A stretch of DNA of 26,052 bases from a virus. Location: positions 1 through 26,052 of the IMG/VR virus record IMGVR_UViG_3300034980_000423, one strand, 5' to 3'. Under the pieces are notes generated by a model, which ran no database searches, was not told the DNA's origin, and saw nothing but the letters and a program-made list of their open reading frames with translations. Both the position numbers and the translations under genes were made by a program. Positions 3,412 to 25,329 of this stretch are shown piece by piece. Numbering within the stretch: the first letter of the stretch is position 1; the number at the start of each line of letters is the position of its first letter.

Positions 3412-3431
3412 TGGCGGCACAGGGGGAACCA

Positions 3432-5898: not shown

Positions 5899-6560
5899 GC
5901 ACGCCACCACAGCACACACGGCAGGACATCAGAGAGGTCCTTGGCGCGGCGGCTGTGATGAAAGGGGGCACTGAGCACCACATGAACACCGTTGACGAGC
6001 TTCATCAGGACGCAATGGACGCTGCGGAGCGGGCCTCTGTAGCTGGCAAGCAAGGCGACCGTCCTGCTTATGATGCGCACATGGCAGAGGCTGCTGATCT
6101 TGAGGCTCGCGCAGCCATGAGCCTCCTTACGAGACTGGATGCAGAGCCAACCCGCTCAATCCTCTTTCGCAGTGCGGCCACCCTCTCGCTAGACGTTGGA
6201 GACCTTCAGCAAGCCGAGCGACTCGTTCACGCTGGCCTCTTCGGCGAGTTGGTTCCGCCCCAGCTTCAAGAGGAGCTCCGTGAGGTCCTTGGCAATATCA
6301 GCTTGGCCCGACACCTGAGTGATCAAGGACGCGCGCAGGGCTGCGATGTCGGATCGGCGGCGCAATTGATCAAGCCACCACAGCACACACGGCAGGACAT
6401 CAGAGCAGCTCTCGAGCGCGGGGATCGGGTCTACTGTCGACGCGGGCGCGTGTCGCAGGCATGGCCAGGTGAGGAGGCGCTATCGGTGGACGTTGGGCGC
6501 GTGGCTCTTCGAGACGATGACCTACAGACGATCAAGATCGAGGGGGTGGAGCGTGGGTAG
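5895..6560 (+). CDS. Chimeric protein: bacterial-type helical domain embedded between duplicated segments
   Basis: ATG at 5895, 221 residues. Residues 4-13 and 161-170 are identical (P-P-Q-H-T-R-Q-D-I-R), encoded by an exact 32-bp DNA repeat. Between them, about residues 31-144 resemble a conserved stand-alone bacterial protein of unknown function that I recall from memory, with E-P-T-R-S-I-L-F-R-S-A-A near 84-95, L-S-L-D-V-G-D-L-Q-Q-A-E-R-L and E-E-L-R-E-V-L near the end. It is all-helical and TPR-like. The C-terminal 60 residues (R-G-D-R-V-Y-C-R-R-G-R-V) look like an original small phage protein. Read simply, a host-type domain has inserted in frame into a short phage gene. Function is unknown. 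The next small gene starts inside its end. Confidence 0.7.
   Translation: MSTPPQHTRQDIREVLGAAAVMKGGTEHHMNTVDELHQDAMDAAERASVAGKQGDRPAYDAHMAEAADLEARAAMSLLTRLDAEPTRSILFRSAATLSLDVGDLQQAERLVHAGLFGELVPPQLQEELREVLGNISLARHLSDQGRAQGCDVGSAAQLIKPPQHTRQDIRAALERGDRVYCRRGRVSQAWPGEEALSVDVGRVALRDDDLQTIKIEGVERG
5903..6405 (+). repeat. Exact 32-bp in-frame direct repeat (5903-5934 and 6374-6405)
   Basis: The 32 bases at 5903-5934 recur without mismatch at 6374-6405, offset by 471 bp (157 codons), so both are read in the same frame. A second, 12-bp repeat GAGGTCCTTGGC occurs at 5934-5945, directly after the first copy, and at 6282-6293. The pair brackets the bacterial-type domain of this gene and could be the footprint of a duplication-mediated insertion. 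Confidence 0.9.
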
Positions 6561-6764: not shown

Positions 6765-7244
6765 ATGAAACCATATCCACAGGAGACGCGGGATCGGTGT
6801 CTGGGGGCGCTGATGGCGTCTGCTGTGCTGGTTGATGGGGAGTGGAGGCCGTGCTTCGCAGCAGTCGGGAAGGAGGAGGGGATCTCGCATCAGACCATGC
6901 GCAGGTGGTGGCGCGAGAGGGACCATGAGAGGGACGTGGCCCTTCGTGGCGCCTCCACGCGCGCGCGCGAAACCGTCGAAGCCGAGGGCGCCGAGGATTG
7001 GACCCGGGGCGCGTGGGTAAAGCTCCGCGATCTCGTTGACAGGGTCATTACCTTCGACGAGGAATCCGACGAGCCGATCGTGATGACCCACCAAGATCGG
7101 GCCCACCTGTCCCGGGCTGCGAAGCTGGTGGCCGAGACATTGCCCGCAGTTGAGGCGGCGCTGTCTGATGAGGGTGACGCCATGAGCCCCAACGAGAGGA
7201 TCCGGCGCGGTCGACTGGCTCTGAAGAGAACGGGGATCGGGTGA
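6765..7244 (+). CDS. terS: Terminase small subunit (putative)
   Basis: ATG at 6765 with GGGTGAGG upstream; 159 residues. A helix-turn-helix is visible around G-I-S-H-Q-T-M-R-R-W-W-R-E-R (residues 39-52), as expected for the DNA-recognition domain. The rest is helical and charged, suitable for oligomer formation. Its stop overlaps the GTG of the large terminase (GTGA at 7241-7244), and this position defines the call more than sequence does. It would recognise the packaging site and regulate the motor. A general DNA-binding regulator is the alternative. Confidence 0.75.
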   Translation: MKPYPQETRDRCLGALMASAVLVDGEWRPCFAAVGKEEGISHQTMRRWWRERDHERDVALRGASTRARETVEAEGAEDWTRGAWVKLRDLVDRVITFDEESDEPIVMTHQDRAHLSRAAKLVAETLPAVEAALSDEGDAMSPNERIRRGRLALKRTGIG

Positions 7245-8866
7245 CTGTCTCGCGCGATCTCTTCGAACGGCTGGGCGCCCTTCCAGCGTCCGATCAGCGT
7301 GACGCCATGTATGCTGTGTGTCGCGATGATCTGGCCGTCTTCTGCGCGTACTACTTCCCCGAGCGCTTCTCTTCGCCGTTCAACCTGATGCACCTGGACT
7401 TTCTCGAACGCGGGAAGGCCCCATGGGGTGAGCGTGCGAGGCAGGCAAAGATCGCAGACGCGGCGCCCCGGGGCGGCGCGAAGTCCACGATCGAGAGCTT
7501 CGCAAGCCTTGCCCATGACGCGGTGTACGGCCTCGAGCTGTACACCACGGTCATCAGCACGACCTACGATCTAAGCGAAGACCTGGTGAAGGACTTGCAC
7601 GCGGTCTTTACCGATCCCGAGGGATACGCCGAGCTCCACGCGGACTACGGGCCGATCCGTGTCACCGGATCCAAGACGGACTTTGTGGTCCACATTCCAG
7701 GACAGGACGCGCGGGGGGCGCGGTTCAAGGCTTTCAGCTTCGGTGGCTCCATCCGTGGCACGAAGCACAAGGGGGTGCGACCGTCGAAGGTAGTGATCGA
7801 CGACGGTGAGCACCCGGAGAAGGTACGAAGCCCAGGCCAGCGCGCCAAGACTTGGGATTACCTGACGAAGGACATTCTCAAGGCGGGCGCGCGCCATACA
7901 GTGTTCCGCGTGGTCGGAACCGTGCTTCACCCTGCCTCGATGCTGGCCGATCTCCTCAAGTCGCCAGCCTGGCGATCTACCCGGTGGCGATCGATCATCG
8001 AGTGGCCCGATCGAATGGACTTGTGGCAAGACTGCCGCAGGATTTGGGCCGACCTCACCGACGAGGATCGCGAAGAGACCGCGCGCACGTTCTACAGGCG
8101 GCACCGTGCGGACATGGACGCGGGCGCGGTGGTGCTCTGGCCCGAAGAGGAGCCGCTGTATGACCTGATGGTGCTCCTGTGGTCCGATGGCGCGGCCAGC
8201 TTCAACAGCGAAAAGCAGAACGAGCCCCGCGACCCGACCCGCCAGCTATTCGACGTGGATGGGTTCCAGCAGTGCAAATGGGATGGACTGAGCACGATCA
8301 CGACTGCAGAGGGGCGCGTGGTCAACCTGCGCGCGTGCAAGGTTCGGATCTGGCTTGACCCACGGGCATCAGATGAGATCGAGCGCAACGATTACGCCGC
8401 CATCGCGGTGGTTGTCGAGGATCCGCACGGGTACCGCTTCGTCATTATGTGCCAGATGAGGCGCAGCACCCCAGCACAGCAACGCGCGGATGTGTGGGCG
8501 GTGTGGCAGCGGTTCCACCACCTGGATGACGTTCGCGTGGGCTACGAAGACAACGGCTTCCAGGCGTTAAACGATGAAGGTTTCAGCCGTGACAAATCAG
8601 AGCGGCGCCGAGCTCAGAAGCCGTGGAAGCTCCCGCTGAAGGGCTACACGTCAACGGTCAACAAGGACGATCGGATCGCAGCGCTCGAACCGGATGTCAT
8701 CAACGGGTGGATCCAGTTTGACGAAGCACTGCCCCCCGAGGTGACCGATCAATTTCGGGACTTCCCCGGAGGCGCCCACGATGACGGGCCCGATGCGATC
8801 GAGCGTGCGCGGTGGCTTCTGTCGGGTCAGATGGGTATTCTTACGATCTCAGGTCTCGGAGGCTGA
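7241..8866 (+). CDS. terL: Terminase large subunit
   Basis: GTG at 7241 coupled to the small subunit; 541 residues. Walker A-type A-P-R-G-G-A-K-S-T is at 75-83 and Walker B V-V-I-D-D at 184-188, followed by G-E-H-P-E. The C-terminal RNase H-fold nuclease shows W-L-D-P (D373), G-Y-E-D-N (E436, D437) and A-H-D-D-G-P-D-A (D514, D515, D518). Length and motif order match TerL proteins, which pump DNA through the portal and cut concatemers. The large TerL plus the gp7/gpF-like gene downstream suggest a headful or related packaging scheme, but this cannot be decided here. Confidence 0.95.
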   Translation: MTVSRDLFERLGALPASDQRDAMYAVCRDDLAVFCAYYFPERFSSPFNLMHLDFLERGKAPWGERARQAKIADAAPRGGAKSTIESFASLAHDAVYGLELYTTVISTTYDLSEDLVKDLHAVFTDPEGYAELHADYGPIRVTGSKTDFVVHIPGQDARGARFKAFSFGGSIRGTKHKGVRPSKVVIDDGEHPEKVRSPGQRAKTWDYLTKDILKAGARHTVFRVVGTVLHPASMLADLLKSPAWRSTRWRSIIEWPDRMDLWQDCRRIWADLTDEDREETARTFYRRHRADMDAGAVVLWPEEEPLYDLMVLLWSDGAASFNSEKQNEPRDPTRQLFDVDGFQQCKWDGLSTITTAEGRVVNLRACKVRIWLDPRASDEIERNDYAAIAVVVEDPHGYRFVIMCQMRRSTPAQQRADVWAVWQRFHHLDDVRVGYEDNGFQALNDEGFSRDKSERRRAQKPWKLPLKGYTSTVNKDDRIAALEPDVINGWIQFDEALPPEVTDQFRDFPGGAHDDGPDAIERARWLLSGQMGILTISGLGG

Positions 8867-8869
8867 ACC

Positions 8870-10288
8870 ATGCCCACCAATGCACAAGGGCGCCGTGTTC
8901 GCTCACTCACCGGAGTCAACAACCTCGACAGTGGAGAGGGGGCGTACACCTGGCCAACCACGCAAGGCGAGTGGATCGCGCATTACGAGCGGCTCCACGC
9001 GGCATACCTGGGCGACCCTTACACGCTGGCCGATGTCAAGGGGTTGCACCTCTTCCGAGCGCTCGACAACAGCAACCAAACGATCGACATTACGACGCGG
9101 TTGACGCGGGATATCCAGCACGTGGTCGACGTGGACACGGCAGCGATTGCGGGTGTGGGGTTGCGGGTCGAGGGGTCTGAGGCGGCTGAGCTGTGCTGGA
9201 AGCGCACCCAGATCCCGCGCCACGTGTCGCGGTGGGCGCGGGTGTGCGCGTCGATGGGCGATCTGCACCTGGAGGCCGTTCGCCAGAGCGGAACGAAGCC
9301 GTACCAGAGCGAGATCGTAGCGTATGACCCGAGACACGTAGAACTGACGTATGACGCCCAAACAGGTCGACGCCTAGAGCGGGCGGTGATCACCGTCCCT
9401 TACTTCGACGAGGGCGACGTATCCCCAACGGGTGAGATCTCCCGGTTCGGCGCGTTGCACACCTACGTTCGCGTTCTCGATCGCGAAGAGATCGCGGTGT
9501 ACGTTGACGGTAAGCGGCAAGACGCCGAGAGCGGTCCCCACAACCTCGGCGTGGTTCCCCTCGTCCACATCCCATTCCTTCCCTACACCGAGCCAGAGCA
9601 CGGCCTGTGGGCTGCTGTGGGCCTCGAGCGACCGCTGGCGCTCCTTGATTCTCTCCTGACTCAGATCAAAGCGGTCGGCAACCGACACGCGAACCCGCTC
9701 CTTGCCATGCTCGGGGTCAAGATCGGGGACGATGCGGACGTGTTCAAGCTCGGGCGCGTGATCTCGGGCGTACCGAGCGACGGCGATGTGAAATACGTTG
9801 AGGCGACCATGGCGGGATTGTCGACGATCTTGAAGACGATCCAGGCACACCTCGACAACATCCGCGCAACCACACCCGAATTCATCTTCACCGAGGGCGG
9901 CGCGGCTGAGAGCGGCCTGTCTCGCAGTTATCGGGCCTCGCTCTTCGTCTCCAAGATGGAGGACGTTCGCGCACGCTTCTATGGAGGGATCGAAGACGCG
10001 ATCGATATGTGCGTTGCCCTCGACGAAGATCGCGAGTACCGACCCGGCGAGGGGGGCACAACGGTCACAGGTGGCCCGATCCTGCCGCCGGATGTGACCT
10101 CGACTCTCGATGCTCTGCAGAAGCTCAAGGATCTCGGAGCTCTTCAGCGGATCGACGTGGTCAGGAAGGCCCAAGCGCTCGGATTCGTTGACGCTGGCTT
10201 GGATCCGGCGAAGTATGCCGCAGAAGCCGAGGATGAGCAGAGCGCCCGGGCGCTTCAGTTCTTTGGGGATCGGGGCTCTGGGGCGTAG
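8870..10288 (+). CDS. Portal protein
   Basis: ATG at 8870 with GGAGG upstream; 472 residues. Position directly after TerL and before a head morphogenesis gene, length, and the block P-E-F-I-F-T-E-G-G-A-A-E-S-G-L-S (around 337-352) with the following helical F-V-S-K-M-E-D-V-R-A-R-F segment fit SPP1 gp6-like portals. These form the dodecameric vertex ring through which DNA enters and leaves. The C-terminal part is acidic and helical (the crown region). No frameshift or truncation is visible. Confidence 0.9.
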   Translation: MPTNAQGRRVRSLTGVNNLDSGEGAYTWPTTQGEWIAHYERLHAAYLGDPYTLADVKGLHLFRALDNSNQTIDITTRLTRDIQHVVDVDTAAIAGVGLRVEGSEAAELCWKRTQIPRHVSRWARVCASMGDLHLEAVRQSGTKPYQSEIVAYDPRHVELTYDAQTGRRLERAVITVPYFDEGDVSPTGEISRFGALHTYVRVLDREEIAVYVDGKRQDAESGPHNLGVVPLVHIPFLPYTEPEHGLWAAVGLERPLALLDSLLTQIKAVGNRHANPLLAMLGVKIGDDADVFKLGRVISGVPSDGDVKYVEATMAGLSTILKTIQAHLDNIRATTPEFIFTEGGAAESGLSRSYRASLFVSKMEDVRARFYGGIEDAIDMCVALDEDREYRPGEGGTTVTGGPILPPDVTSTLDALQKLKDLGALQRIDVVRKAQALGFVDAGLDPAKYAAEAEDEQSARALQFFGDRGSGA

Positions 10289-10291
10289 CTC

Positions 10292-11362
10292 GTGACGGTG
10301 AACTCAGACATTGCCGACGAGATTGTAAAGCACAGGCTCTTCCTGCTCCGCTACGAGGGGGGCGCGGTTCGGCGTCTGCTCGAGGCTTACGACGACGTAA
10401 CCGGATCGATCTGGGCAGAGATCGACCGCCTACGCTACAAGGCGCGTGGGGTTGGGCTCACCTCTGCCGATCGTCAACGGATGCGCGACCTAAAGCGCAC
10501 CCTTGAGGTGGGCGTTCGCGTCTTTCAGCAACGAGCTGATGAGATCTTGGAAGAGTCGATCAAAGCGGCAGCGGAGGCCGAACGGCGGATCGTGGCTGCG
10601 AAGGTCTCGGATGCTCTGCCGTCATCGGTGAAGGCTGGCTTCAGCCTGGCGCCTGACGCGGATCGGCTGGTGGCGTTGGCCGATTTCGCCTCGGGTCGAC
10701 CGTGGCAGGTTCGGCTAGCGGTCGACCTGGTTGAACAGCAGATGAGGATCCAGAGCGTTCTCGACCGGGCCTCAGCGGAGGGTCTGTCGATGCCGAAGAC
10801 GGCGCGACTGCTCAAGACCGCAACAGGGATCGAGGGCACATATCGGAACCGCTACGTTGCAATCGCCCGAACTGAGGTTCAGCGGGTCGCGAACGTGGCA
10901 GCGATGCAGACCTATGACGCCAATCGGGACGTGGTGAAGGGGGTGCAATACCTCGCCACGCTGGACTCTCGAACCTGTCTCAGGTGCGCCCCGCTACACA
11001 ACAAGGTGTACCTGTACCAGGGAGACGGGCGGCTGCTGGCAGATGACGGCACAGAGGCGCCAGTGATACCGATCCACCCGCGCTGTCGGTGCTTTTACAC
11101 TCCGGTGACGAAGTCGTGGGAAGAGCTCGGGATCGACGTGGAGCCAGATCCAGATCTTGACGGTGAGCCAGCGCCGGAAATGAGCTTCCCGCAGTGGTTA
11201 AAGCGTCAGGACGAGGGCACGCAGCTCGATGTCTTCGACGGCAGCGCAAAGCGGTGGAAGGCATGGAAGACGGGCGCGGTGCCCTTCGACGAGTTCGCCA
11301 CACCGCAGAAGACGCGAACGCTCGAGGAGCTCCGCGCCACTCATTCAGGGTTCCGTGGGTAG
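10292..11362 (+). CDS. Head morphogenesis protein, SPP1 gp7 / Mu gpF-like
   Basis: GTG at 10292, 356 residues. The N-terminal half is charged and helical. The core domain has I-A-R-T-E-V-Q-R-V-A-N, then D-S-R-T-C-L-R-C (C229, C232), P-L-H-N-K-V-Y, and I-H-P-R-C-R-C (H262, C265, C267). This Cys/His set is diagnostic of the phage Mu gpF-like/SPP1 gp7 family, minor capsid proteins that bind the portal and enter the head in few copies. After the core a 90-residue acidic/aromatic tail follows. The last 18 bp overlap the end of a reverse-strand gene. Confidence 0.93.
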   Translation: MTVNSDIADEIVKHRLFLLRYEGGAVRRLLEAYDDVTGSIWAEIDRLRYKARGVGLTSADRQRMRDLKRTLEVGVRVFQQRADEILEESIKAAAEAERRIVAAKVSDALPSSVKAGFSLAPDADRLVALADFASGRPWQVRLAVDLVEQQMRIQSVLDRASAEGLSMPKTARLLKTATGIEGTYRNRYVAIARTEVQRVANVAAMQTYDANRDVVKGVQYLATLDSRTCLRCAPLHNKVYLYQGDGRLLADDGTEAPVIPIHPRCRCFYTPVTKSWEELGIDVEPDPDLDGEPAPEMSFPQWLKRQDEGTQLDVFDGSAKRWKAWKTGAVPFDEFATPQKTRTLEELRATHSGFRG

Positions 11363-11662
11363 CGCCCCGAGTGCCTTGACTGCCCCGGGGCGGTTCCGCC
11401 CTGACCTCTCGTCAGCGAGCATCGTTGCCCGTTCAGCGACTGCCAGCGTGGGCGCGATCTCTCGGATGGCGCCCACGGGCAGCTTCCCCGGATCGACGGT
11501 CGGCGTCGGCGGGTCTGGACGAAGGGCGGCGGCGGCGGCTTGCCCCCCGAGGGTCGCGAACCTCTCCCGCGCGATGTCCGCGCAGCCGTGCTGCTCGATG
11601 GTGCGCCCCTCGTCGTCGAGGATGAGCCACCGCAGATAGGCGGGTTGATGTGTGAGCTGCAT
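11345..11662 (-). CDS. Reverse-strand accessory gene, hypothetical (105 aa)
   Basis: Reads against the head operon. ATG at 11662 (reverse strand) is preceded by GGGAG seven bases upstream, an appropriate ribosome-binding site. The product begins M-Q-L-T-H-Q-P-A-Y-L-R-W-L-I-L-D-D-E-G-R, then has an alanine/proline-rich linker and a helical, basic C-terminus. No convincing forward gene covers 11363-11662, which supports coding on this strand. Its 3' end overlaps the head morphogenesis gene by 18 bp (convergent). It shares an operator-like divergent region with the scaffold gene. It may be a moron expressed independently of the late genes. Function is not recognised. Confidence 0.6.
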   Translation of the reverse strand: MQLTHQPAYLRWLILDDEGRTIEQHGCADIARERFATLGGQAAAAALRPDPPTPTVDPGKLPVGAIREIAPTLAVAERATMLADERSGRNRPGAVKALGALPTEP

Positions 11663-12875: not shown

Positions 12876-13871
12876 ATGTCAATGGACATTTCCCAAGTTC
12901 CCGAGCTGGTTGACAACACCGGCTATCCCCTGCTTATCGAGGGATATGACAGCGTCCCGCTGGTGTACCCCCTTGTCGCTGACGTTCGACCGGTTGACGG
13001 CGACACGTTGTACGGCACAAAGGGCAGCGTGATTACCGGCATGGGCGAGCTCAAGCCCCGGCTTGACGGCGCCGAGTTCGAGCGGGATCAGTTCCGCAGC
13101 GGGCCTACCTGGTACATGAAGACCCACCAGTGGGGATCGGCCTTCGAGATCCCCGATCGGATGCTGAAGGCAACCGATGCAGCGGCCCGCGTTGAGGGCT
13201 TGATCCGCTCTCAGGTGGCGTCCTGGGGACGTTCCACTGCAATGAAGAAGGATCGGTGGTTCGCTGATTTCCTTCAGCAGGGCACCCTGACCGCAGGAAA
13301 CGCGGCGTACTTTGACGGATCGTTCCCCAACAACGACGATCCGAACCCGAAGTTCGTTTATGACGGTCTCCCGCTCTTCGACACCGCGCACACCATCACG
13401 ATCGGGTCGAGCACCTACGCGAACCACGCGGTGAGCTCGTCGCTGACAAAGGCCAACCTGGAGACCGCCGTTCGGACGTGCGAGACAACCAACGCGGTCG
13501 ACGAGCGCGGAGAGGGAATCCTGGTCAACATCGATCGGCTCATGGTGCCTCCCGCCTTGCGTGAGACTGCCCTCACGATCGTCGGCTCTGAGCTGCTCCC
13601 CGGTAGCGCCAACAACGACATCAACACGGCGCGCGGATCGGTGCAGGTCATCGTCAACCGCTGGCTTGATGACGCGGCGTCTGCCTCTGCGTGGTGGCTC
13701 TTCGACAGCGGCATGGGCTCGATCAAGGTCTTCGACAGTGGCCAGCCTGTGATCGTCACAACCCACATCCCAGAGCGGAACGTGACCCTTGTGACGGCTG
13801 AAACCTACTTTGGTGTGGTTGCTGCTCAGGCATTCCGGGGCACCTACTGTGCCAATAAGGCTGCATCCTGA
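12876..13871 (+). CDS. Major capsid protein (HK97-fold, gpT-like)
   Basis: ATG at 12876 with GAGAGG upstream; 331 residues. The central block Y-D-G-L-P-L-F-D-T-A-H-T-I and the following S-L-T-K-A-N-L-E-T-A and L-M-V-P-P-A-L-R-E-T-A resemble Mu gpT-type major capsid subunits, and the size fits. It is the expected gene after scaffold and decoration. No protease-processing site is recognised. The N-terminus is not an obvious delta domain, consistent with use of a separate scaffold. Confidence 0.88.
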   Translation: MSMDISQVPELVDNTGYPLLIEGYDSVPLVYPLVADVRPVDGDTLYGTKGSVITGMGELKPRLDGAEFERDQFRSGPTWYMKTHQWGSAFEIPDRMLKATDAAARVEGLIRSQVASWGRSTAMKKDRWFADFLQQGTLTAGNAAYFDGSFPNNDDPNPKFVYDGLPLFDTAHTITIGSSTYANHAVSSSLTKANLETAVRTCETTNAVDERGEGILVNIDRLMVPPALRETALTIVGSELLPGSANNDINTARGSVQVIVNRWLDDAASASAWWLFDSGMGSIKVFDSGQPVIVTTHIPERNVTLVTAETYFGVVAAQAFRGTYCANKAAS

Positions 13872-14256: not shown

Positions 14257-14652
14257 ATGAACACGATCGGCACCGGCACCCTTCACACCGTTCAAAAGGC
14301 AGCGATCACGGCTGATGTTGCGGCGTTGCTGCAGGACACGGTGACCGCGACGAGCGTGGTTGTGGATTCGGTGACGGCGGCCAGCTTCGACGCGGCGCGC
14401 GGCACCTCGGCGCCTTCGACTGCCCAGGTATCGACAACCGGCTGGATGTCTGATCTCGCCTTGCGTGAGATTGTAGAGAGCGGCGGCGCCTACCAGGCTG
14501 GCGATCGTCGTCTGCTCGTACCATCGGCAGACTTCACAACTGCCCCCGAAGTGGGCGCCACCTTTCGCGCGGGCAGTGATCGCTATGCCGTGCTTACCTC
14601 TGAACTTGACCCGCTCGGGCTCTTCTATGAGCTCATCGGGCGCCGAACTTGA
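14257..14652 (+). CDS. Head closure / head-tail joining protein (putative)
   Basis: ATG at 14257, 131 residues. Largely beta-strand prone, with helical N-terminus (K-A-A-I-T-A-D-V-A-A-L-L-Q) and C-terminal D-R-Y-A-V-L-T-S-E-L-D-P-L-G. Size and place between the connector and gp10-like genes fit a head-closure or stopper protein. Family identity is inferred from order and size rather than a diagnostic motif. Confidence 0.5.
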   Translation: MNTIGTGTLHTVQKAAITADVAALLQDTVTATSVVVDSVTAASFDAARGTSAPSTAQVSTTGWMSDLALREIVESGGAYQAGDRRLLVPSADFTTAPEVGATFRAGSDRYAVLTSELDPLGLFYELIGRRT

Positions 14653-14661
14653 GAGTATACA

Positions 14662-15162
14662 ATGGCTGAAATTGTCCGTGGCATCCGCATCAAGGTCACT
14701 CTCACGAGCGTCATTGTGGGCGATGACGCCGCAGAGCAGCGCGTGATCGCTGACTACGATCGAACCTTCACCGATGGCACCGCAGCCGACAACCTTGGGA
14801 ACGCATTCTATGATGCCTCCCGCAACCTGAACGCGGGCGCGGAGGATATTGATCTTGGCGCGGGTGGCGTGACGGACTTCCAAGGGGCGGACATTGTCGC
14901 CACCTCGGTGGGCCTCGTTTGGGCCGAGAACCTGGACACCGACACGGGCGATTGGCTGAAGCTCACCAAGGGCACGACCAACCCGATGACATCCATTCTC
15001 GAGGGCACCGCGCCCAAGCTGACCATCGGGCCGGGCGGGCTGTGCCTGCTCGTGAATCCGGCGGATAAATACACGGCAGCAAACGGCAGCGCCGATACCA
15101 TCGGCTTCGAGACCGCAGACAACACGAATTACAAGCTCTTCATCGGAGTGGACAACGCTTGA
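14662..15162 (+). CDS. Virion structural protein of the neck/decoration beta-protein type
   Basis: ATG at 14662, 166 residues. Features are an N-terminal strand I-R-I-K-V-T-L-T-S, a D-R-T-F-T-D-G-T-A segment, D-L-G-A-G-G-V-T-D-F-Q-G-A, then I-G-P-G-G-L-C-L-L-V-N-P-A. This pattern recalls a common uncharacterised phage virion family located between head and tail genes. It probably forms a beta-sandwich. Its last bases overlap the TTG start of the gp10-like gene. Confidence 0.55.
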   Translation: MAEIVRGIRIKVTLTSVIVGDDAAEQRVIADYDRTFTDGTAADNLGNAFYDASRNLNAGAEDIDLGAGGVTDFQGADIVATSVGLVWAENLDTDTGDWLKLTKGTTNPMTSILEGTAPKLTIGPGGLCLLVNPADKYTAANGSADTIGFETADNTNYKLFIGVDNA

Positions 15163-15677
15163 GCCGAGCAGGACGCCAGGACGGGCCCAGCCTGGAGATC
15201 GACAACGAGCGATTCGCCCGTGCGATCGGGGCGTTCTTGCGTTCCCACATTCCAGACGTGGCATCAGCGTCCGTGCGCAAAATCGCGTTTGATGTGGTGG
15301 CCGAGACACAGAAAGCCCTCAACGGCACCATGGGCGGGCTGCCAAAGCGGATCGATACCGGCCGCCTTCGTGGTGGCTGGCGGGTTGCCCTCGAGAACGG
15401 CGGCCTCCCCACCGCAGGGCTCGCCAGGTCGAGCGCCAACACCTCCGCAGACGGTGACGCGACCGACGAGGGGCGCGGGCATGAGCGCACGATCACGGTG
15501 ACCAACAAGGTGGAGTACGCACCGTTTGTTGAGTTTGGCACGGCCCACATGGCGCCAGGCTTGCACCTGACGCGGGCGCTGCGCGTCACCGCACAGCGAA
15601 TCATTCGGCGCACCTCCCCGGAGAACGTGTCGGGCGAGCTGCGCACCGAGGTAGATCGCGCATGGGCGGCGGGCTGA
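15159..15677 (+). CDS. HK97 gp10-like neck/tail completion protein
   Basis: A TTG start at 15159 overlaps the upstream stop (TTGA), giving 172 residues. The pattern R-I-D-T-G-R-L-R-G-G-W-R-V followed by V-E-Y-A-P-F-V-E-F-G-T (around 124-134), then M-A-P-G-L-H-L-T-R-A is the signature of the HK97 gp10 family, which attaches or completes the tail. TTG is uncommon but no better start preserves the N-terminus. It overlaps the next gene by one base (TGATG). Confidence 0.85.
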   Translation: MSRAGRQDGPSLEIDNERFARAIGAFLRSHIPDVASASVRKIAFDVVAETQKALNGTMGGLPKRIDTGRLRGGWRVALENGGLPTAGLARSSANTSADGDATDEGRGHERTITVTNKVEYAPFVEFGTAHMAPGLHLTRALRVTAQRIIRRTSPENVSGELRTEVDRAWAAG

Positions 15678-17211: not shown

Positions 17212-17483
17212 ACACCGTCAAGGCTCTGGACATGATGATCTGCGAGCGGCTCCACATCCCCGATCCTGCTCTCCTGATGGAGTGGCGCCCCGGTTTGCTG
17301 TGCAAGTGGAGGGGCCATCTTCTCAATCAGGCGCGTGGGTCATACGGGCGGCAGGTTGCCCCAGAGGCGCCCCCGACGCTCACCGCAGAGCAGGCGGTGG
17401 GCATGGTCCACCGGAACCGGCAGCGCGCAGCGGAGGGGCTCCCGTCCCTGTCGATCGCTGAGTATGCGCGCGGGGATCGCTGA
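17190..17483 (+). CDS. Tail assembly chaperone frameshift extension (gpT-like), made as 241-aa fusion
   Basis: This segment is in the -1 frame relative to the short chaperone and lacks its own clear start and ribosome-binding site close to its beginning. After the slip it reads L-T-G-P-A-G-G-Y-T-V and continues for 97 codons to TGA at 17481-17483. Joined with the 144 residues upstream it yields a 241-residue fusion. It contains L-D-M-M-I-C-E-R-L-H-I-P and E-Q-A-V-G-M-V-H-R-N-R. In lambda-like phages the T extension bridges tape measure and tube protein. Its stop overlaps the tape-measure ATG (TGATG). Confidence 0.85.
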   Translation: MTGPAGGYTVKALDMMICERLHIPDPALLMEWRPGLLCKWRGHLLNQARGSYGRQVAPEAPPTLTAEQAVGMVHRNRQRAAEGLPSLSIAEYARGDR

Positions 17484-19453
17484 TGGCTCTCGCAGACGAA
17501 CTGCAGTTCAAGGTGGGCCTCGACCTCTCGGGGTTCCAGCGCGGCCTAAGAGGCGCACAGGGTCAGCTCTCACGCTGGGGCGTGACGGCTGCTCGAGCGT
17601 TCGCTGGCGTGGCATCTGCGGCGGCTGGTGTGGGGGCGGTGGTCACAGCGATCGGCGTGTCTGCGGTCAAGACGGGCGCTGAGTTCGAGTCGCTTGAGAC
17701 GCAGCTAGGGACGCTCCTTGGCGGCGCCGAGGCGGGCGCAAAGCGGATGGAGGAGATCTTCGCGTTTGCGACATCCACCCCGTTTGAACTTACCGATCTC
17801 GTCGAGGCGGAGGTCAATCTAAGAGCGCTGGGGCTCGCGGCTGACGAGGTGCTACCGCTGGTGGCGGACTTCGCAGGGGCTATGGGTGTCGACATTCCAC
17901 AAGCTGCCGTCGAGGTGGGCCGGGCGATGCAGTTCGGCGCGGGCGCAGTGGAGACCATCGCAGGGCGGGCGCTACGGGCGCAGGTGGAGCTACGCACCGG
18001 AACCGACGCGCTAAAGATGAGTACCGAGGAATTCCGCGAAGAGCTCACCAAGACGCTCACCGATCCCGATGGGATTTTCGCGGGAGGGACTCAGAAGCTA
18101 GCAGCGACCTTCGACGGCTTGTTGTCCAACCTCTCGGATCAGTGGACGGCGTTTAAAAAGGACGTGGCTGATGCGGGACTCTTCGACGGTGTAAAAGCAG
18201 CGCTTCGTGAAACGCTCGTGATCATCAACGAGAACCGCGCAGGGACACAGAGTTGGGCCGAAGACATCGGGATCGGGGTCCTCGCATCGTTTCAAATGCT
18301 GATCCAGGCGGGCGGTACGCTCGTAGATTGGGCCACAGGGTTCAAGCTGGTGTGGACGGGGATCGGGGTCCTCGTTGATGAGATCTTCCTGTCCTGGCTA
18401 TCGTTTGCTGGAAAGATGACGCAGGCTTGGAAATTCTGGTTTGAGATCTTCGACGCTATCAACCCGATCGCAGCCAAGGCGGTGGATCTGCTGAATGACG
18501 CAGATCTCATCTTCACGGAGCTTGGCAGGACGGCGGAAGAGTCAGCGACGAGGGGCGCGGCCTCCATGGTCGAGCTCACAAACGAGCTCGGCGCGGGCGC
18601 TGAGGCTGCTGAGAGGCTGAACACTGCGATCGACATGCGCAACAAGGGGACGTTCGCGGATATCGTCGGGCCGTCTGTGGGCGGTGGGGCGCCTGTGGGC
18701 GGCGGGGTGGATCTGTCCATGACAGCGGGCGGCGGCGACGATGCGGGCGCCGCGCTTGACGGCGTGACAGACGATCTTGATGACGTGTTGTCTGACCTGG
18801 ACGACGTTGGTGCGAGCCTCGACGACACGCTGTCAGATCTGGACATCTTCGTAAACCGGATCAAGGCGATCCCCATGATCGCGGCTACCGCAGCGTCTCA
18901 GACGTTTGGGGCTCTTTCGTCTATGGGCAGGCTGGCGGCTGATAGCCTCTCCGAGAGCAACGCCAAAGCGGCGCGAAAATGGATGAAATTCGCAGCGGCA
19001 GCGGCGATCTTCCAGGCTACGATCGACGCCGCTGTGGCTATTGGCAAGGGATACGCCCAGCTCGGGCCGATCGGCGGATCGGTGGCGGCGGTTGGAACGG
19101 CTGCTGTGTTTGCTGGCCAGGTGTTCAACGCGATCAATTCAGCGAAGATCCCAGAGTTCGACGACACGCCAGGAGTCATGCGGGCGGATGGTCGGCAGAT
19201 GGTCTCTCTGCATGGCGAAGACAAATTCGCAGCGGCGAAGAGCACAGACGATCTGTTGCTTCAGGTGCTCGCGCTGATGTCCTCCGAGCGGGGATCGGCT
19301 GGTGGCACGGCGCCCCAGCTCCCGCCCGTGTCGGTCTCTTACAAGCACCTCGATCGGCAATTTGCCGATGATATGGCGATGGGTGGCCGGATCCGAACAT
19401 CGGTCACACGCGCAGCCAGGCAAGGCGGGCGCGCTGGTCAGGGGGCTATGTAG
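17483..19453 (+). CDS. Tape measure protein
   Basis: ATG at 17483 overlapping the chaperone stop, 656 residues. The N-terminal L-Q-F-K-V-G-L-D-L-S-G-F-Q-R-G-L pattern is typical of tape measures. Hydrophobic stretches lie at about 38-62, 263-312 and 500-550. The region between is helical, with a glycine-rich hinge (about 395-425) and a D/L-rich heptad-like stretch (430-460). It spans the tail lumen, fixes tail length, and its hydrophobic parts may help DNA pass the membrane. At roughly 0.15 nm per residue the tail would be close to 100 nm. No lytic transglycosylase or peptidase motif is recognised. Confidence 0.9.
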   Translation: MALADELQFKVGLDLSGFQRGLRGAQGQLSRWGVTAARAFAGVASAAAGVGAVVTAIGVSAVKTGAEFESLETQLGTLLGGAEAGAKRMEEIFAFATSTPFELTDLVEAEVNLRALGLAADEVLPLVADFAGAMGVDIPQAAVEVGRAMQFGAGAVETIAGRALRAQVELRTGTDALKMSTEEFREELTKTLTDPDGIFAGGTQKLAATFDGLLSNLSDQWTAFKKDVADAGLFDGVKAALRETLVIINENRAGTQSWAEDIGIGVLASFQMLIQAGGTLVDWATGFKLVWTGIGVLVDEIFLSWLSFAGKMTQAWKFWFEIFDAINPIAAKAVDLLNDADLIFTELGRTAEESATRGAASMVELTNELGAGAEAAERLNTAIDMRNKGTFADIVGPSVGGGAPVGGGVDLSMTAGGGDDAGAALDGVTDDLDDVLSDLDDVGASLDDTLSDLDIFVNRIKAIPMIAATAASQTFGALSSMGRLAADSLSESNAKAARKWMKFAAAAAIFQATIDAAVAIGKGYAQLGPIGGSVAAVGTAAVFAGQVFNAINSAKIPEFDDTPGVMRADGRQMVSLHGEDKFAAAKSTDDLLLQVLALMSSERGSAGGTAPQLPPVSVSYKHLDRQFADDMAMGGRIRTSVTRAARQGGRAGQGAM

Positions 19454-22400
19454 TGGCAAGCGATCTCTCAACCGATCTCCCGTATCTTCGAGGGCTCGGG
19501 CTCGCGGACACCCGGCTAGCGCCTACCACGGCGCTATGGAGCTCCGAGGCCAGCGTGGGAGAGCAGGACCCCACACCAGGGGAGGCCGTTCCACAGCAGA
19601 CAACCTCTAGGATGCTGCTGCGTCCGTCAGGCACACAGTCCGCAGCGGGAGCGCTCACGATTCAAACGCTCACCGCTGGCCATCCGCGACCCGGTCAAGG
19701 CGGGTTCGGCTTCACAAAGGGCGGCGTGACATACGGTCACGATGTCCCGAACTCTATCAGCTTCTACGAAGCGATCGAGATCACAGACGGCGGCGCGGGC
19801 TACGCGCGGCGGGCGGCGCTGTACCCTGACGCGGTGGGCCTGGACAATGACGCCGCTGTGGTGGTGGTACACGCTCGGGATGTGGTGGCGTCGGTCACGT
19901 CGTACAAGGTCAGCGCCTACGTCCGATCGACGGCGGGCGCGTGGGCGTCTGCGGTGACGCTTTACACCACGAATACGGCGCCCCCCACCAGCCCTTCTAC
20001 AATGCACTTTCACCCGTGCGTGGCCGACCTCGGTGACGGCGTGGTCATCTGTGCCCATTGGGTGTACGACACCGTAAATAACGAAGCGAACATCCGAGTA
20101 CACCGATCGACGGATTCCGGCGCAACGTGGGCGGCTCTCTCGCGGTGGGCGCTCGAGTCATCGATCGATGTGAGCACATACACGCCGGGCAAGATGCGGA
20201 TGGCCAATAAGGGCGATCAGGTCGTGATCATGGCAGCGATCAAGAAGCCAGGGGCGACGACATACGCAGACCAGATCGGACAGTTCGCATCGGATTCGCG
20301 CGGGCGATTCTTTGAGAAGATCGAGTTCTACAACAACTCGGAGGCCGCCGTCTTCGGGTTCGGGGGCGTGGTTACCGTGGATGCGGGCTTTATGGTCGCC
20401 TATTGGCAATCAATCGGCGCGGCGTCCACGCTGTATGTTCGGACATTGGGGACCGCTGCTAGTCCATTCAGCGAGGCAGAAGATGTTGACACGGGACAGG
20501 GCCCAGGCAATTTCGCGACATACACCACGGGTCCGATATCAATTCTGAGTTCCGACGTTGACGTGGTTGTTGATGACTCGGGCGCCGTGTTTGCGTATGT
20601 GCGTGACGCTGGCAGCAACGAGGGAACGCTCATCAGATCCCATGACATGGGCGCCACATGGGTAAACGTGGGCAAGAACAATGGCCGCACCTATGGGACG
20701 TGGTGGAACTCGCTTGTAACGACGGCAGCGCCTGTCAATTATGCAGCCATGGTTACCCATGGCCGGGCGCAAATCGTCTGCAACGCTACGCTTGGGACGA
20801 GTTCGTTTGATGACTCCCTGTTTAGCTTGCATCTTGGCGGATGGTCTTCCGTCAACCTCCCTGGGTACGTGGAGCATCAGCGCGATGACAAGCGGGTGGC
20901 GATCGGGAATCTCACCTGGGCACCGTGGGAACTCCCCGAGAATTGTTCATGGACGAAGACGGGCGCGGCAGCAACGACGCTCGAGGCCGATAAGATGGAC
21001 ATCACATCGTCGTCGAACCCTGGGCACTACGCGCCAACAACGGCCCCAAGCGGCACGGTATCCGAAGGGATCACGGTACTGGTAGCGTTCCGCGTGACCT
21101 CTGGGGGCTCGCAGACAATCGCCCAAGCTGGGATCCGGCTAACTCTGGATGACAACGTCAAGGACTACCAAGTCACGATTCGCGCGAATGGGTCAGGGTT
21201 CACGCTCTACGACAACCTTGGTACACCTGCCACATTGGCGACGGTTGCGCAGAACATGGGCGCCCCGGTTTGGTTTCTGGTCAGCATGAACGACGGAAAC
21301 GTGTCGGCCTGGTACCGGGCGGGCGGCGTGTCTGATGCGTGGGCGTGGACTGAGATCGTTAGCGATCAAAGCGTTCAGGATGGCGGCGGCGGCGTGAACT
21401 CTGGCGCGAACAATTTTCAGTTTGGCCACCTCGTTTCCAGTTCGTCAACGTCCTCCGATTGGTACTGGGCTTCAGTTGTATCGGATGAATACAACGGAGG
21501 CGGAAACACCCTTGGATCTGGCCAGGTGTCGCCCGATGAACTGTTCCCAAGGTTCTACGGTGGTGCGGGGCGGCGCCTATATGTCAACGACGGAGTCAGG
21601 ATCACCGCCCTCTCTGGCCCAGCCGACGAGGGCGACCAATTCCAGATCGACGCCGGATCACGTTTCGAGGTGGAGCGCCTTTTTTACAGGTACTCCCCAC
21701 ACCGTCGCGCGGGTTGGCGTTCTCTCGCAGCCACGCCCATCGCACAGCAGGACATCCCGCTAGTCTATGACTCGACCTTGACGGCCTCGGGGCAGGAAAC
21801 GAAGCCCCCGAGCGATACCGTCGCATTCGTCATCACAGACGCCAGCTTCAGAGACTTCGAGATCTGGGGCTATACGTCGGGCGCATGGGTGAGCCTGTTT
21901 AGCGGTACCACGGTGCTCACAACAGGCGAGCTCGACCGATCGGGAACCACCGTTGCTGCAGGCGCGGCGCACACAAGCCCCCCGAACCTGTGGCCAGGCG
22001 AGCTGAACGGCGGCACCGTGCGCCTGATTGACGGCACACCCAAGGACGTGGTGCGCTCCATCGTGAGCCATACCGGCGGATCCTTCATGGCAAGCGGCAG
22101 CGGTCAGCAGGTCAAGATCGAGATCGAGGGTGCGCTGGCTACCGACCCCACCACAGGCAACAACACGTGCGAGGTATGGAGTCCGCACACATGCGTAGTC
22201 ATCAACCTCAAGGGGGTCGACTATGCCGGGTTCCGGTTGCGCATCCCAGCTCAGACCACAGCGACGGGCGATGCTCGGGCCACGTTGTTTGGTGTCTACA
22301 ACGTGGCTCCGTTCGGGTTCATGGATAGCCGCGGATGGTCCGAAGGGGTGATCCCCGGGGCGGCTCTGTCGGCACAAGATGACGGCGTCGAGGTGCCGGT

Positions 22401-22800
22401 GTATCAATCGCCAGGGCGGCGCGTGGTATCGCTGAAGTTTGGCGATGCTATGGATCTCACCCAGTTCAATGCGACATCCGCGCCCGATTACATCGAAGCC
22501 ACCGCGAACGCGGGCGGCGAGCCCATCGCGCAGCGGCATGACACGTTGTTGAAGCTCTCGGGGTGGTTGCGCGCCATGGACAACACCGATCCCGTGCTGT
22601 GGCTCCCGCGCCTGGACTACATCGCCAGCGGCAGCGATACCACGCAGCTATTTAGGTGGGGGCGTGAGTTCATGCTGTGCACGCTTACGAGCGGTTTGAC
22701 GTTTACGCACACGGATGGGCGATACCTGGGCACATCGTCAGGGGCGCGTCACGGTGAGCTCGTGAGCGGTGACGGGATCACCCTCCGAGAGATCACATAG
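19453..22800 (+). CDS. Large tail-tip/receptor-binding protein with Asp-box propeller and lectin-like region
   Basis: GTG at 19453 overlapping the tape-measure stop, 1115 residues. Two sialidase-type Asp boxes, S-T-D-S-G-A-T-W (219-226) and S-H-D-M-G-A-T-W (396-403), lie in a beta-rich region of about 100-470, consistent with a beta-propeller. About 490-690 looks like a concanavalin/LamG-like beta-sandwich (C-S-W-T-K-T-G, then W-F-L-V-S-M-N-D-G-N-V-S-A-W). The remainder is beta-rich tail-tip type. Asp boxes occur in glycan-binding or -cleaving propellers, so surface-glycan recognition is likely. Sialidase catalytic arginines and the Tyr/Glu pair were not identified, so enzyme activity is not claimed. 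Confidence 0.75.
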   Translation: MASDLSTDLPYLRGLGLADTRLAPTTALWSSEASVGEQDPTPGEAVPQQTTSRMLLRPSGTQSAAGALTIQTLTAGHPRPGQGGFGFTKGGVTYGHDVPNSISFYEAIEITDGGAGYARRAALYPDAVGLDNDAAVVVVHARDVVASVTSYKVSAYVRSTAGAWASAVTLYTTNTAPPTSPSTMHFHPCVADLGDGVVICAHWVYDTVNNEANIRVHRSTDSGATWAALSRWALESSIDVSTYTPGKMRMANKGDQVVIMAAIKKPGATTYADQIGQFASDSRGRFFEKIEFYNNSEAAVFGFGGVVTVDAGFMVAYWQSIGAASTLYVRTLGTAASPFSEAEDVDTGQGPGNFATYTTGPISILSSDVDVVVDDSGAVFAYVRDAGSNEGTLIRSHDMGATWVNVGKNNGRTYGTWWNSLVTTAAPVNYAAMVTHGRAQIVCNATLGTSSFDDSLFSLHLGGWSSVNLPGYVEHQRDDKRVAIGNLTWAPWELPENCSWTKTGAAATTLEADKMDITSSSNPGHYAPTTAPSGTVSEGITVLVAFRVTSGGSQTIAQAGIRLTLDDNVKDYQVTIRANGSGFTLYDNLGTPATLATVAQNMGAPVWFLVSMNDGNVSAWYRAGGVSDAWAWTEIVSDQSVQDGGGGVNSGANNFQFGHLVSSSSTSSDWYWASVVSDEYNGGGNTLGSGQVSPDELFPRFYGGAGRRLYVNDGVRITALSGPADEGDQFQIDAGSRFEVERLFYRYSPHRRAGWRSLAATPIAQQDIPLVYDSTLTASGQETKPPSDTVAFVITDASFRDFEIWGYTSGAWVSLFSGTTVLTTGELDRSGTTVAAGAAHTSPPNLWPGELNGGTVRLIDGTPKDVVRSIVSHTGGSFMASGSGQQVKIEIEGALATDPTTGNNTCEVWSPHTCVVINLKGVDYAGFRLRIPAQTTATGDARATLFGVYNVAPFGFMDSRGWSEGVIPGAALSAQDDGVEVPVYQSPGRRVVSLKFGDAMDLTQFNATSAPDYIEATANAGGEPIAQRHDTLLKLSGWLRAMDNTDPVLWLPRLDYIASGSDTTQLFRWGREFMLCTLTSGLTFTHTDGRYLGTSSGARHGELVSGDGITLREIT

Positions 22801-24407
22801 TGCCCACGCCACGCCCGACAGCGGCGGATCTTGCGTCTGCTCAGGTGGTGTGGATCTTGACGATCGAGTGGCGCGGGCGCGAGTACCGACGCAGCACGAT
22901 CCCAATCGAGATCACAGATGCCGATGGCGTGACCCATGCGTATCAAGGGGGTCTCGGAGACATCAGCGGCCTTGAGGAGTCGCTATCCTCGGCGTCCGTG
23001 AACGGCGGATCGGTGCCGCTTGAGATCGATTTTGAGGAAGACCTGATCACGGTGTACGCGGACGGCTACCGGCTGAGCAGCGCCACGGGGTCACTTGACA
23101 TGGTAACGACCCGAGATCGGGCGACATCGGTTCAAACGTGGGAAGGTCGATACCGGTACCTCACCGGGCGCGTTGTGCTGCCTCGGATATCAGCGCGGGG
23201 CGATCGGCCTGGCCTTGCTTCGTTCTCACTCGAGCAGAGCATCACGCAGGATCGAGGGCGGATCCTGCCTGCCTCCGCAGTGATCACGGGTGTCACCTAT
23301 CCAAACGCCCCAGAGAAGAGCGTGGGCAAGGTCTACCCGCTCGTGATGGGGCGCCAGGGCAGCTATCCAAGCGGCGGCGTTACCTTCGACACGTTGGGAT
23401 CTCCCGCCTATGTGGTCGAGGAGACCGGCAGCAACGCAGACACGTTGCACCTTGGCTACGGGCACTGGACAGCAACCCAAGCCAAGATCATCGCGGACAG
23501 TACGAAGACCGCCGCGCTAACCCTGATCAAGATTCACGACGCCACCGGGCAGGCTGTCACCGAGGTCGACATATCGGGCCAGAGCTCCGCGATTCGCACG
23601 GCGTCCGCCTACTACAGCAGCATCAGCAGTGGGGAGGGTTACCGGCTGCCGTTCTCAGGCACCGATCACCGGGGCGCGGGAGACTGGATCCGGTTCATGC
23701 TCAGCCGGTCAACGCTGACCATTGACAACGATGCATGGTCTGCAGTTACGCCAGCGCTGAACGGGTACAAGATCGCGAGCTTCATCAACGATCCCGACGT
23801 TACCCCTAGTGAATGGCTGATTGATAACGTCCTCGGTCTCTTTCCTCTCGACGTGCTGATGGGCCCCGAGGGGCTAACGCCCGTTCTCGATGAGCTGGAA
23901 GTCCCACCCATCGGCGCGCGACCAATAAACGAAAGCGCGGATTTTCGGCGCGTGGGCCCGCTTCAGGAGCGGACAGATCCAGCGGATTTGGTGGAGTCGT
24001 ACACGCTTCGGTTTGCCAAGAACGTGGGGGCCAATGACTTCAAGCTACAGATTACAATAGCTGCGGATCCTACTCCCGGTGGGCGTCGGTCGCTGTCTAC
24101 CCTAAACGCAAAACAGTCGGGGGCGTTGGCCTCGATGGTCGAGGAGACGGACGTCTTAAGCGATCCCGGTAGTGGCGATGGGTTGGCGCGGTATCGCGCT
24201 AAGAAGCTGTCGCAGCAGCCGGTCTGGGATCTATTCTCAGCCGCCAACCACTATGGCAACATCAGCGTGGGGGATCACGTGGCTCTCACATGGAGCGAGA
24301 AGGGGATCGCTGATGTTGTCTTCCGCGTGGAGGGCAAGCGGCGCGTTCGTGGTCGGTGGGTCTTCCTCGCGATGTTCCCCTATGGGCTGCGGGGGCTCGT
24401 TCGCTGA
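22800..24407 (+). CDS. Tail-tip/baseplate hub-like protein
   Basis: GTG at 22800 overlaps the preceding stop (TAGTG), 535 residues. N-terminal strands I-L-T-I-E-W-R-G-R-E-Y-R, a centre with G-K-V-Y-P-L-V-M-G-R-Q-G and G-S-P-A-Y-V-V-E-E, and a C-terminal beta region ending V-F-R-V-E-G-K-R-R-V-R. The K-V-Y-P-L-V-x-G and S-P-A-Y-V-V-E pattern recalls uncharacterised phage tail-tip proteins encoded after receptor-binding genes. No peptidoglycan hydrolase motif is seen. It is the last gene of the uninterrupted tail operon: a reverse-strand gene ends one base later. Confidence 0.6.
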   Translation: MPTPRPTAADLASAQVVWILTIEWRGREYRRSTIPIEITDADGVTHAYQGGLGDISGLEESLSSASVNGGSVPLEIDFEEDLITVYADGYRLSSATGSLDMVTTRDRATSVQTWEGRYRYLTGRVVLPRISARGDRPGLASFSLEQSITQDRGRILPASAVITGVTYPNAPEKSVGKVYPLVMGRQGSYPSGGVTFDTLGSPAYVVEETGSNADTLHLGYGHWTATQAKIIADSTKTAALTLIKIHDATGQAVTEVDISGQSSAIRTASAYYSSISSGEGYRLPFSGTDHRGAGDWIRFMLSRSTLTIDNDAWSAVTPALNGYKIASFINDPDVTPSEWLIDNVLGLFPLDVLMGPEGLTPVLDELEVPPIGARPINESADFRRVGPLQERTDPADLVESYTLRFAKNVGANDFKLQITIAADPTPGGRRSLSTLNAKQSGALASMVEETDVLSDPGSGDGLARYRAKKLSQQPVWDLFSAANHYGNISVGDHVALTWSEKGIADVVFRVEGKRRVRGRWVFLAMFPYGLRGLVR

Positions 24408-24408
24408 A

Positions 24409-24795
24409 CTACCACGCAGGGACAACCCAGCGCGCCTCATACCACGCGGATTCGCCGTCTATTGAGCTGCCCTCGTCCGTTGTCCCCGAGCAGGGCACCC
24501 GCACCAGGCCGGACTCATAGATCCGAAGGTGTGAGCCTGTCAGGTCGATACACCGTGCGCCGTGATCCGGGTTTACGTCGTCGTCTCGGCTGGTGCTCGA
24601 GCAGAACAGCAACCGCCCGATCGCGTCGGGATGTGGGGCGGTTGACTCGATCCAGTAAGCGTCAGACGCGGCGTCATTGACGCACCCGCCGAGGTCGACA
24701 CGGATCACCGATGGCGCGGAGTGCTGGTGGGCAGCTTGGCTGCCTTCGACAGAGTCACACCCACAGAGAATCAAGCCAAGGACAAGCGCACGCAT
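24409..24795 (-). CDS. Reverse-strand lipoprotein (moron candidate, 128 aa)
   Basis: ATG at 24795 on the reverse strand, preceded by GGGGGA; an ATG twelve bases further out is less well placed. The start M-R-A-L-V-L-G-L-I-L-C-G-C-D is a short lipoprotein signal peptide with lipobox L-C-G-C and lipidated Cys13. Asp at +2 would keep it in the inner membrane if an E. coli-like Lol rule applies. The mature part has four further cysteines, which may form two disulfides, and a compact charged composition. Transcription opposes the tail genes and stops just after the hub gene. Phage lipoproteins of this kind often block superinfection or alter the host surface. The role here is inferred. Confidence 0.75.
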   Translation of the reverse strand: MRALVLGLILCGCDSVEGSQAAHQHSAPSVIRVDLGGCVNDAASDAYWIESTAPHPDAIGRLLFCSSTSRDDDVNPDHGARCIDLTGSHLRIYESGLVRVPCSGTTDEGSSIDGESAWYEARWVVPAW

Positions 24796-24963
24796 ATGTT
24801 CCCCCATTGCCCTGTGTACGCACTTCCTCTGTAGATATTGCAGCGCCCACGTTCACGGGCGCACCACACACGGAACACCGCGCCCAGATGCCAGCAGCCG
24901 TGCTAAGTTCGGTTCATCCGAACCCGTGCGGGTTTCACATCGGAATCACCGAAGGGGGCCAAG
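24796..24963. promoter_or_regulatory. Divergent intergenic region with mutually exclusive hairpins
   Basis: 168 bp between the lipoprotein gene and a forward tail gene. GCGCCC (24843-24848) pairs with GGGCGC (24857-24862). GTTCGG (24907-24912) pairs with CCGAAC (24918-24923). AACCC (24921-24925) pairs with GGGTT (24930-24934). The last two share 24921-24923, so they cannot form together. Divergent promoters must lie here, but no clear -35/-10 pair was found. Confidence 0.4.
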
Positions 24964-25329
24964 ATGGCAGCCATTGACCTACGAGCAGCCTCTAAGACGG
25001 GTTGGGTACACACTCAGGCCAGCGTGGCCACAACGTGGCAGCAGTACCAGATCCCCTCATGGTGCAATCAGGTCACGGTCTTGGGAGACGCGATCGTCTA
25101 TGTCGCTGGCGAGGAGAACGGCAATCCGGCGAGCTCGGAGAGCCCGGCAGACGGTGGCGCGGTGGGCACACATCGGATCGAGATCCCAGCCTCGACCGCC
25201 TACCCGGTGGGGATTCAGGGCGACCCGGTCCAGGTGACGGTCGGCGGCGGCGCGTCCCCATCGGGGTCGATCTTCGTCGCAGCCAAGACGGGAACCGCTA
25301 CGGTGACGCTGCAGCTCGAGCGCGTGTAG
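24964..25329 (+). CDS. Small tail-tip/fibre-associated protein (121 aa), putative
   Basis: ATG at 24964 with AGGGGG seven bases upstream. The 121-residue product is beta-rich: W-Q-Q-Y-Q-I-P-S-W-C-N-Q-V-T-V-L-G, then a Gly/Ser-rich centre, Q-V-T-V-G-G-G-A-S-P and a last strand T-V-T-L-Q-L-E-R-V. It looks like a small jelly-roll or beta-sandwich and is next to another tail-like gene. Its independent ribosome-binding site and upstream regulatory gap suggest a separate transcript from the main tail operon. No specific family is recognised. Confidence 0.6.
   Translation: MAAIDLRAASKTGWVHTQASVATTWQQYQIPSWCNQVTVLGDAIVYVAGEENGNPASSESPADGGAVGTHRIEIPASTAYPVGIQGDPVQVTVGGGASPSGSIFVAAKTGTATVTLQLERV

What the first reader, a model, noticed from the sequence alone, without database searches (positions are those of the whole stretch)
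24409..24795. Phage-encoded lipoprotein transcribed against the tail operon
The reverse-strand ORF has a short signal peptide, lipobox L-C-G-C, Asp at +2 and four more cysteines. Lipoprotein genes placed in the tail region and read from their own promoter are known from phages that block superinfection at DNA injection, so this is a good candidate immunity factor with no recognised homologue family.
Basis: partly seen in the sequence, partly recalled or inferred. Interest (0 to 1): 0.62.

Follow-up and report, generated by a model that had tools for sequence, protein, structure and literature searches.

The report
Phage lipoprotein gene opposing tail genes
An uncultured tailed phage carries, just after its tail genes and on the opposite strand, a small gene for a lipid-anchored envelope protein without any known relative; its placement matches genes with which phages T5, T1 and Rtp shut out competing phages, so it is a plausible but untested exclusion factor.

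Summary
A 128-codon reverse-strand ORF (24409-24795, or 132 codons from an ATG at 24807) fills most of the 556-nt gap between the last tail gene (22800-24407, +) and the next forward gene (24964, +). It has a lipoprotein signal (L-C-G-C, Asp +2) and four further cysteines. An ORF of this length in such a gap is unremarkable (22% by chance); one with a PROSITE-like lipobox is not (about 0.1%). Codon statistics (P about 0.002), composition and a GGGGGA ribosome-binding site favour a real gene. No homologue was found in any collection searched; the virus itself, a 26-kb fragment, has only distant relatives. Exclusion lipoproteins of T5 (Llp), T1 (Cor) and Rtp (Rtp45) lie antiparallel to tail genes, next to or near the tail-tip or receptor-binding gene. 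They act on receptor binding; the injection blocker Ltp lies in a lysogeny module. Against assignment: no sequence similarity, larger mature domain, Asp rather than Ser at +2, unknown host, no promoter or lysogeny evidence, and a second antiparallel ORF in the head region, so lone reverse genes are not special to exclusion here. Best reading: orphan envelope lipoprotein, probably an exclusion factor (0.4).

The parts
24409..24795 (-). lipoprotein gene, 128 aa; signal peptide residues 1-12, lipidated Cys13 expected, Asp +2, Cys 38/65/82/102 in a 116-residue acidic mature domain (12.4 kDa, pI 4.5)
   Evidence: ORF, lipobox, codon statistics, ribosome-binding site
24796..24807 (-). possible upstream start (ATG 24807, adds MGEH) overlapping the GGGGGA ribosome-binding site of the 24795 start
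   Evidence: sequence; SD energies
24796..24963 (.). 168-nt divergent intergenic region between the lipoprotein gene and the next forward gene; the promoters of both are expected here; no sigma-70-like site found
22800..24407 (+). last gene of the tail module before the lipoprotein, 535 aa, distal tail or tail-tip protein by position (after tape measure 17483-19453 and the 1115-aa gene 19453-22800); its stop is one base from the stop of the lipoprotein gene (convergent)
   Evidence: position; no family match; structure model unusable, pLDDT 31
17483..19453 (+). tape measure protein; anchors the tail module
   Evidence: PHROG 973 E 1e-18, Pfam TMP_3 E 1e-9
24964..25329 (+). 121-aa protein, next forward gene; distant relatives in five viral contigs lie beside head or structural genes

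Best explanation
A solitary phage gene for a secreted, lipid-anchored envelope protein that probably serves as a superinfection-exclusion factor working like Llp, Cor and Rtp45. Because it is read from the strand opposite to the late tail genes, it can be made at another time than the tail (early in infection, or in a lysogen). The precursor is exported by Sec, lipidated and cleaved at the L-C-G-C box, and the disulphide-stabilised 12-kDa domain sits at an envelope membrane, where it binds the receptor (or injection channel) used by the adjacent tail-tip protein and keeps further phages, or progeny stuck on debris, from using it. Shown here: a real-looking gene, lipobox, placement, lack of homologues. 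Inferred: expression, lipidation, disulphides, target, exclusion.
For: Lipobox ORF in the gap at P about 0.001 and coding statistics at P about 0.002. Same placement as T1 cor (-, 29623-29850, with tail genes +), Rtp45 (-, 27687-27917, tail J gene rtp43 + ends 26723) and T5 llp (+, with oad and tail genes - and annotated divergent promoters). Published: Llp blocks FhuA to the T5 receptor-binding protein (PMC9586334), Rtp45 binds LptDE from the periplasmic side (PMC12685063), receptor-binding loci with cognate exclusion proteins lie downstream of gpJ in small coliphages (PMC8594841). Like Llp and Cor, which carry an intramolecular disulphide (PMC9586334), the mature part has Cys beyond the lipid one. 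BF23 Llp does the same job as T5 Llp without homology to it (PMC4728585), so lack of similarity does not exclude the role.
Against: No sequence similarity to Llp, Cor or Rtp45. Mature part is 116 aa against about 60 aa. +2 is Asp (an inner-membrane retention signal in E. coli, PMC3222651) where all three known ones have Ser. Temperate phages N15 and HK022 carry cor codirectional with the tail genes, so orientation is not diagnostic. A second antiparallel ORF at 11345-11662 lies among the head genes, so lone reverse genes occur in this phage without any link to the tail tip. The tail-tip identity of 22800-24407 is by position only.
Confidence: 0.4

Rival explanations
1. Lysogenic-conversion or other envelope moron: a lipoprotein that changes the host surface for another purpose (as lambda Bor does), with no effect on phage entry.
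For: Lone gene against the operon, orphan sequence, secreted Cys-bearing domain; second antiparallel ORF in the same phage.
Against: No lysogeny gene recognised in the window; nothing specific for any other role; no match to Bor or any Pfam, PHROG or NCBIfam family.
Confidence: 0.3
2. Outer-membrane spanin subunit (o-spanin) used in the last step of lysis.
For: o-spanins are short phage lipoproteins, those of the T4 family are not proline-rich and carry two conserved Cys, and separated o-spanins show beta character (PMC6139136); no lysis gene was found elsewhere in this fragment.
Against: No i-spanin-like ORF (N-terminal membrane helix) next to it on its strand; terminase relatives L007, L009, L010 and L011 carry short lipobox ORFs of Rz1-like, proline-rich appearance just upstream of the terminase, not after the tail; no C-terminal membrane helix, so not a u-spanin.
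Confidence: 0.12
3. Spurious ORF in a non-coding divergent regulatory region.
For: No homologue, so no test by conservation; ORFs of this length arise in 22% of such gaps at this GC; Cys is also raised in shadow frames (2.9%).
Against: Lipobox P about 0.001, codon log-odds P 0.0017, gene-like composition, good ribosome-binding site, exact abutment to the convergent stop.
Confidence: 0.12

Closest known systems
Llp, lytic conversion lipoprotein of phage T5
   Same: small lipoprotein gene opposite in strand to the tail and receptor-binding (oad) genes and adjacent to them; Cys beyond the lipid Cys
   Different: 77 aa, Ser +2, oad and llp diverge from shared promoters (here the tail gene and lipoprotein converge); no sequence similarity
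Cor of phage T1 (and N15, HK022)
   Same: in T1: antiparallel lipoprotein gene after the tail-tip region, convergent to it and divergent from the next forward gene
   Different: 75 aa, Ser +2, two intervening forward genes after the gpJ homologue; in N15 and HK022 codirectional with the tail; no sequence similarity
Rtp45 of phage Rtp
   Same: lipoprotein on the reverse strand shortly after the gpJ homologue, divergent from the next forward gene
   Different: 76 aa, paired with the receptor-binding protein gene rtp44 on the same strand, which has no counterpart here; no sequence similarity
Ltp of Streptococcus phage TP-J34
   Same: phage lipoprotein acting in exclusion
   Different: Gram-positive host, lysogeny module, blocks DNA injection (PMC3952083); not in a tail region
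o-spanins (Rz1, T4 PseT.2)
   Same: small phage lipoprotein, Cys outside the lipobox in some
   Different: paired with an i-spanin gene, usually by the lysis genes; no such partner here

Membership tests
bacterial lipoprotein (signal peptidase II substrate) | lipobox with Lys/Arg n-region and uncharged h-region | tested here: met
   M-R-ALVLGLILCG-C; pattern match; with the 24795 start the signal is only 12 residues, with 24807 it is 16
bacterial lipoprotein (signal peptidase II substrate) | lipidation and cleavage at the Cys | not testable with these tools
   needs labelling or globomycin
Llp/Cor/Rtp45 superinfection-exclusion lipoproteins | sequence similarity to a known member | tested here: not met
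   no meaningful BLASTP match (best a 6-residue match, E 4); no PHROG, Pfam or NCBIfam match
Llp/Cor/Rtp45 superinfection-exclusion lipoproteins | gene next to or near the tail-tip or receptor-binding gene | tested here: inconclusive
   directly follows the tail module, but the tail-tip identity of 22800-24407 is by position only
Llp/Cor/Rtp45 superinfection-exclusion lipoproteins | strand opposite to tail genes (virulent members T1, Rtp, T5) | tested here: met
   not a strict feature, N15 and HK022 differ
Llp/Cor/Rtp45 superinfection-exclusion lipoproteins | outer-membrane sorting (Ser +2 in known members) | tested here: not met
   Asp +2; meaning depends on the host's sorting rule, host unknown
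Llp/Cor/Rtp45 superinfection-exclusion lipoproteins | blocks phage receptor | not testable with these tools
   needs plating and adsorption assays
o-spanin | adjacent i-spanin gene | tested here: not met
   no N-terminal membrane-helix ORF beside it on its strand; fragment ends 1.25 kb away
u-spanin | C-terminal membrane helix | tested here: not met
Ltp-type exclusion lipoprotein | location in a lysogeny module | tested here: not met
   located after the tail genes; no integrase or repressor recognised among the genes scanned

The most novel reading that the evidence does not exclude
A new, unrelated family of phage exclusion lipoproteins in an uncultured lineage: a two-disulphide domain that masks a receptor outside the enterobacterial set, or, if Asp +2 retains it in the inner membrane, one that blocks DNA entry from a tail-linked locus.
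Probability: 0.2. Interest if true: 0.5.

Novelty: new member of a known kind. Interest (0 to 1): 0.3.

Why it matters
If it is an exclusion factor, it adds evidence that phages place receptor-blocking lipoproteins opposite to their tail-tip genes well beyond coliphages, making the arrangement itself a guide for finding such genes where sequence similarity fails. Taken alone it is one orphan gene in one fragment.

Tried and rejected
Homologue searches of the lipoprotein: Pfam, PHROGs, NCBIfam, PADLOC, PDB sequences, phage and plasmid tblastn, IMG/VR, GTDB contigs and 395 genomes of the phylum of the terminase hit: nothing credible. The three weak genome matches (L029-L031, E 0.002-0.008 per genome in a search of 395) and L028 are of the size expected by chance; L029 lies antisense to a ComEA-like ORF. 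Close relatives of the virus: none; only 27-31% identical terminases, 36-44% helicases and 42-49% methyltransferases. Lipoprotein structure model: pLDDT 52, suggests a beta-rich domain but too weak for a fold search, not run. Structure of 22800-24407: pLDDT 31, unusable. Promoter scan and shared motifs between intergenic regions: nothing above chance. ORF length as evidence: rejected. tRNA and Rfam: nothing.

Full report
What is there. The window is a complete IMG/VR-type virus record of 26,052 bases, linear, without end repeats, so probably a fragment. Forward genes give a DNA methyltransferase (466-1812), HNH-like protein, primase/helicase pieces (3369-5578), Mu-type terminase (7241-8866), portal (8870-10288), minor head (10292-11362), major head (12876-13871), connectors (14257-14652, 15159-15677), tape measure (17483-19453), and two large unassigned genes after it (19453-22800, 22800-24407). 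All assigned genes are on +. The ORF in question is on - at 24409-24795, its stop one base from the stop of 22800-24407, and 168 nt divergent from 24964-25329.

Is it a gene? Length alone does not show it: 22% of random 556-nt stretches of this composition hold an ORF of at least 125 codons. Length plus a PROSITE-like lipobox arises in about 0.1%. The frame has the highest codon score of the six frames of the gap, P = 0.0017 against random stop-free frames, the codon-position GC pattern of the real genes, a GGGGGA ribosome-binding site before the 24795 ATG, and an amino-acid make-up like the real genes and unlike shadow frames. I hold it to be a real gene at about 0.88. Two in-frame ATGs make the precursor 128 or 132 residues; the shorter has the better ribosome-binding site but a very short 12-residue signal.

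What protein? Signal peptide, L-C-G-C box, then a 116-residue acidic mature domain (12.4 kDa, pI 4.5) with four more Cys, enough for two disulphides. A single-sequence AlphaFold2 model is poor (pLDDT 52) and only hints at beta strands. No relative was found by any search available. The virus has no close relatives either, so an orphan is unsurprising and conservation cannot be tested.

What does the placement say? I compared annotated genomes of phages with tested exclusion lipoproteins. In T1 the tail genes are + and cor is - at 29623-29850, followed by a divergent + gene. In Rtp the gpJ homologue is + to 26723, rtp44 and the lipoprotein rtp45 are - to 27917, and the next + gene starts at 28260. 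In T5 the tail genes and oad are - and llp is + with divergent promoters annotated. The window has the same scheme. Papers held here show that Llp binds FhuA and folds its outer loops over the binding site of the receptor-binding protein (PMC9586334), that Rtp45 binds LptDE (PMC12685063), and that receptor-binding loci with cognate exclusion genes lie downstream of gpJ in small coliphages (PMC8594841). BF23 Llp performs the same function as T5 Llp without homology (PMC4728585), so orphan status is compatible. Two cautions: N15 and HK022 carry cor on the tail strand, and this phage has another lone antiparallel ORF at 11345-11662 among head genes with strong codon statistics, so orientation alone is not diagnostic.

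The tail-region lipoproteins act on receptor binding. The one that blocks DNA injection, Ltp, is in the lysogeny module of Streptococcus phages (PMC3952083). 'Own promoter' is unproven; no sigma-70-like site was found, though the host's promoters are unknown. 'Lysogen' is unproven; no lysogeny gene was recognised among the genes scanned, and the fragment is incomplete. Asp at +2 would in E. coli favour the inner membrane (PMC3222651), unlike Ser +2 in Llp, Cor and Rtp45; with the host unknown this cannot be resolved and fits an outer-membrane receptor blocker less well.

Verdict. A real, orphan phage lipoprotein gene in a position known for exclusion factors. Mechanism most likely: independently timed envelope lipoprotein that masks the receptor of its own tail tip (0.4); other envelope moron 0.3; o-spanin 0.12; spurious 0.12. 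Interesting as a lead, ordinary in kind.

Noticed in passing
window 11345-11662 (-): Second antiparallel ORF (105 aa, ATG) in the gap between the minor head gene and the scaffold-like gene; highest codon score of all non-gene ORFs and none of 2000 random frames as good; no Pfam match.
   Followed up: partly
window 24964-25329 (+): 121-aa protein with distant relatives (27-42%) in five viral contigs; in L002 two copies follow portal- and scaffold-like genes, suggesting a small virion protein, here displaced to after the tail.
   Followed up: partly
L007, L009, L010, L011: Terminase relatives carry short lipobox ORFs of Rz1-like, proline-rich appearance just upstream of the terminase; the window has none there.
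   Followed up: no
window 5896-5934 and 6367-6405: 39-nt direct repeat, 95% identical, coding PPQHTRQDIR twice in the 221-aa gene 5895-6560.
   Followed up: no
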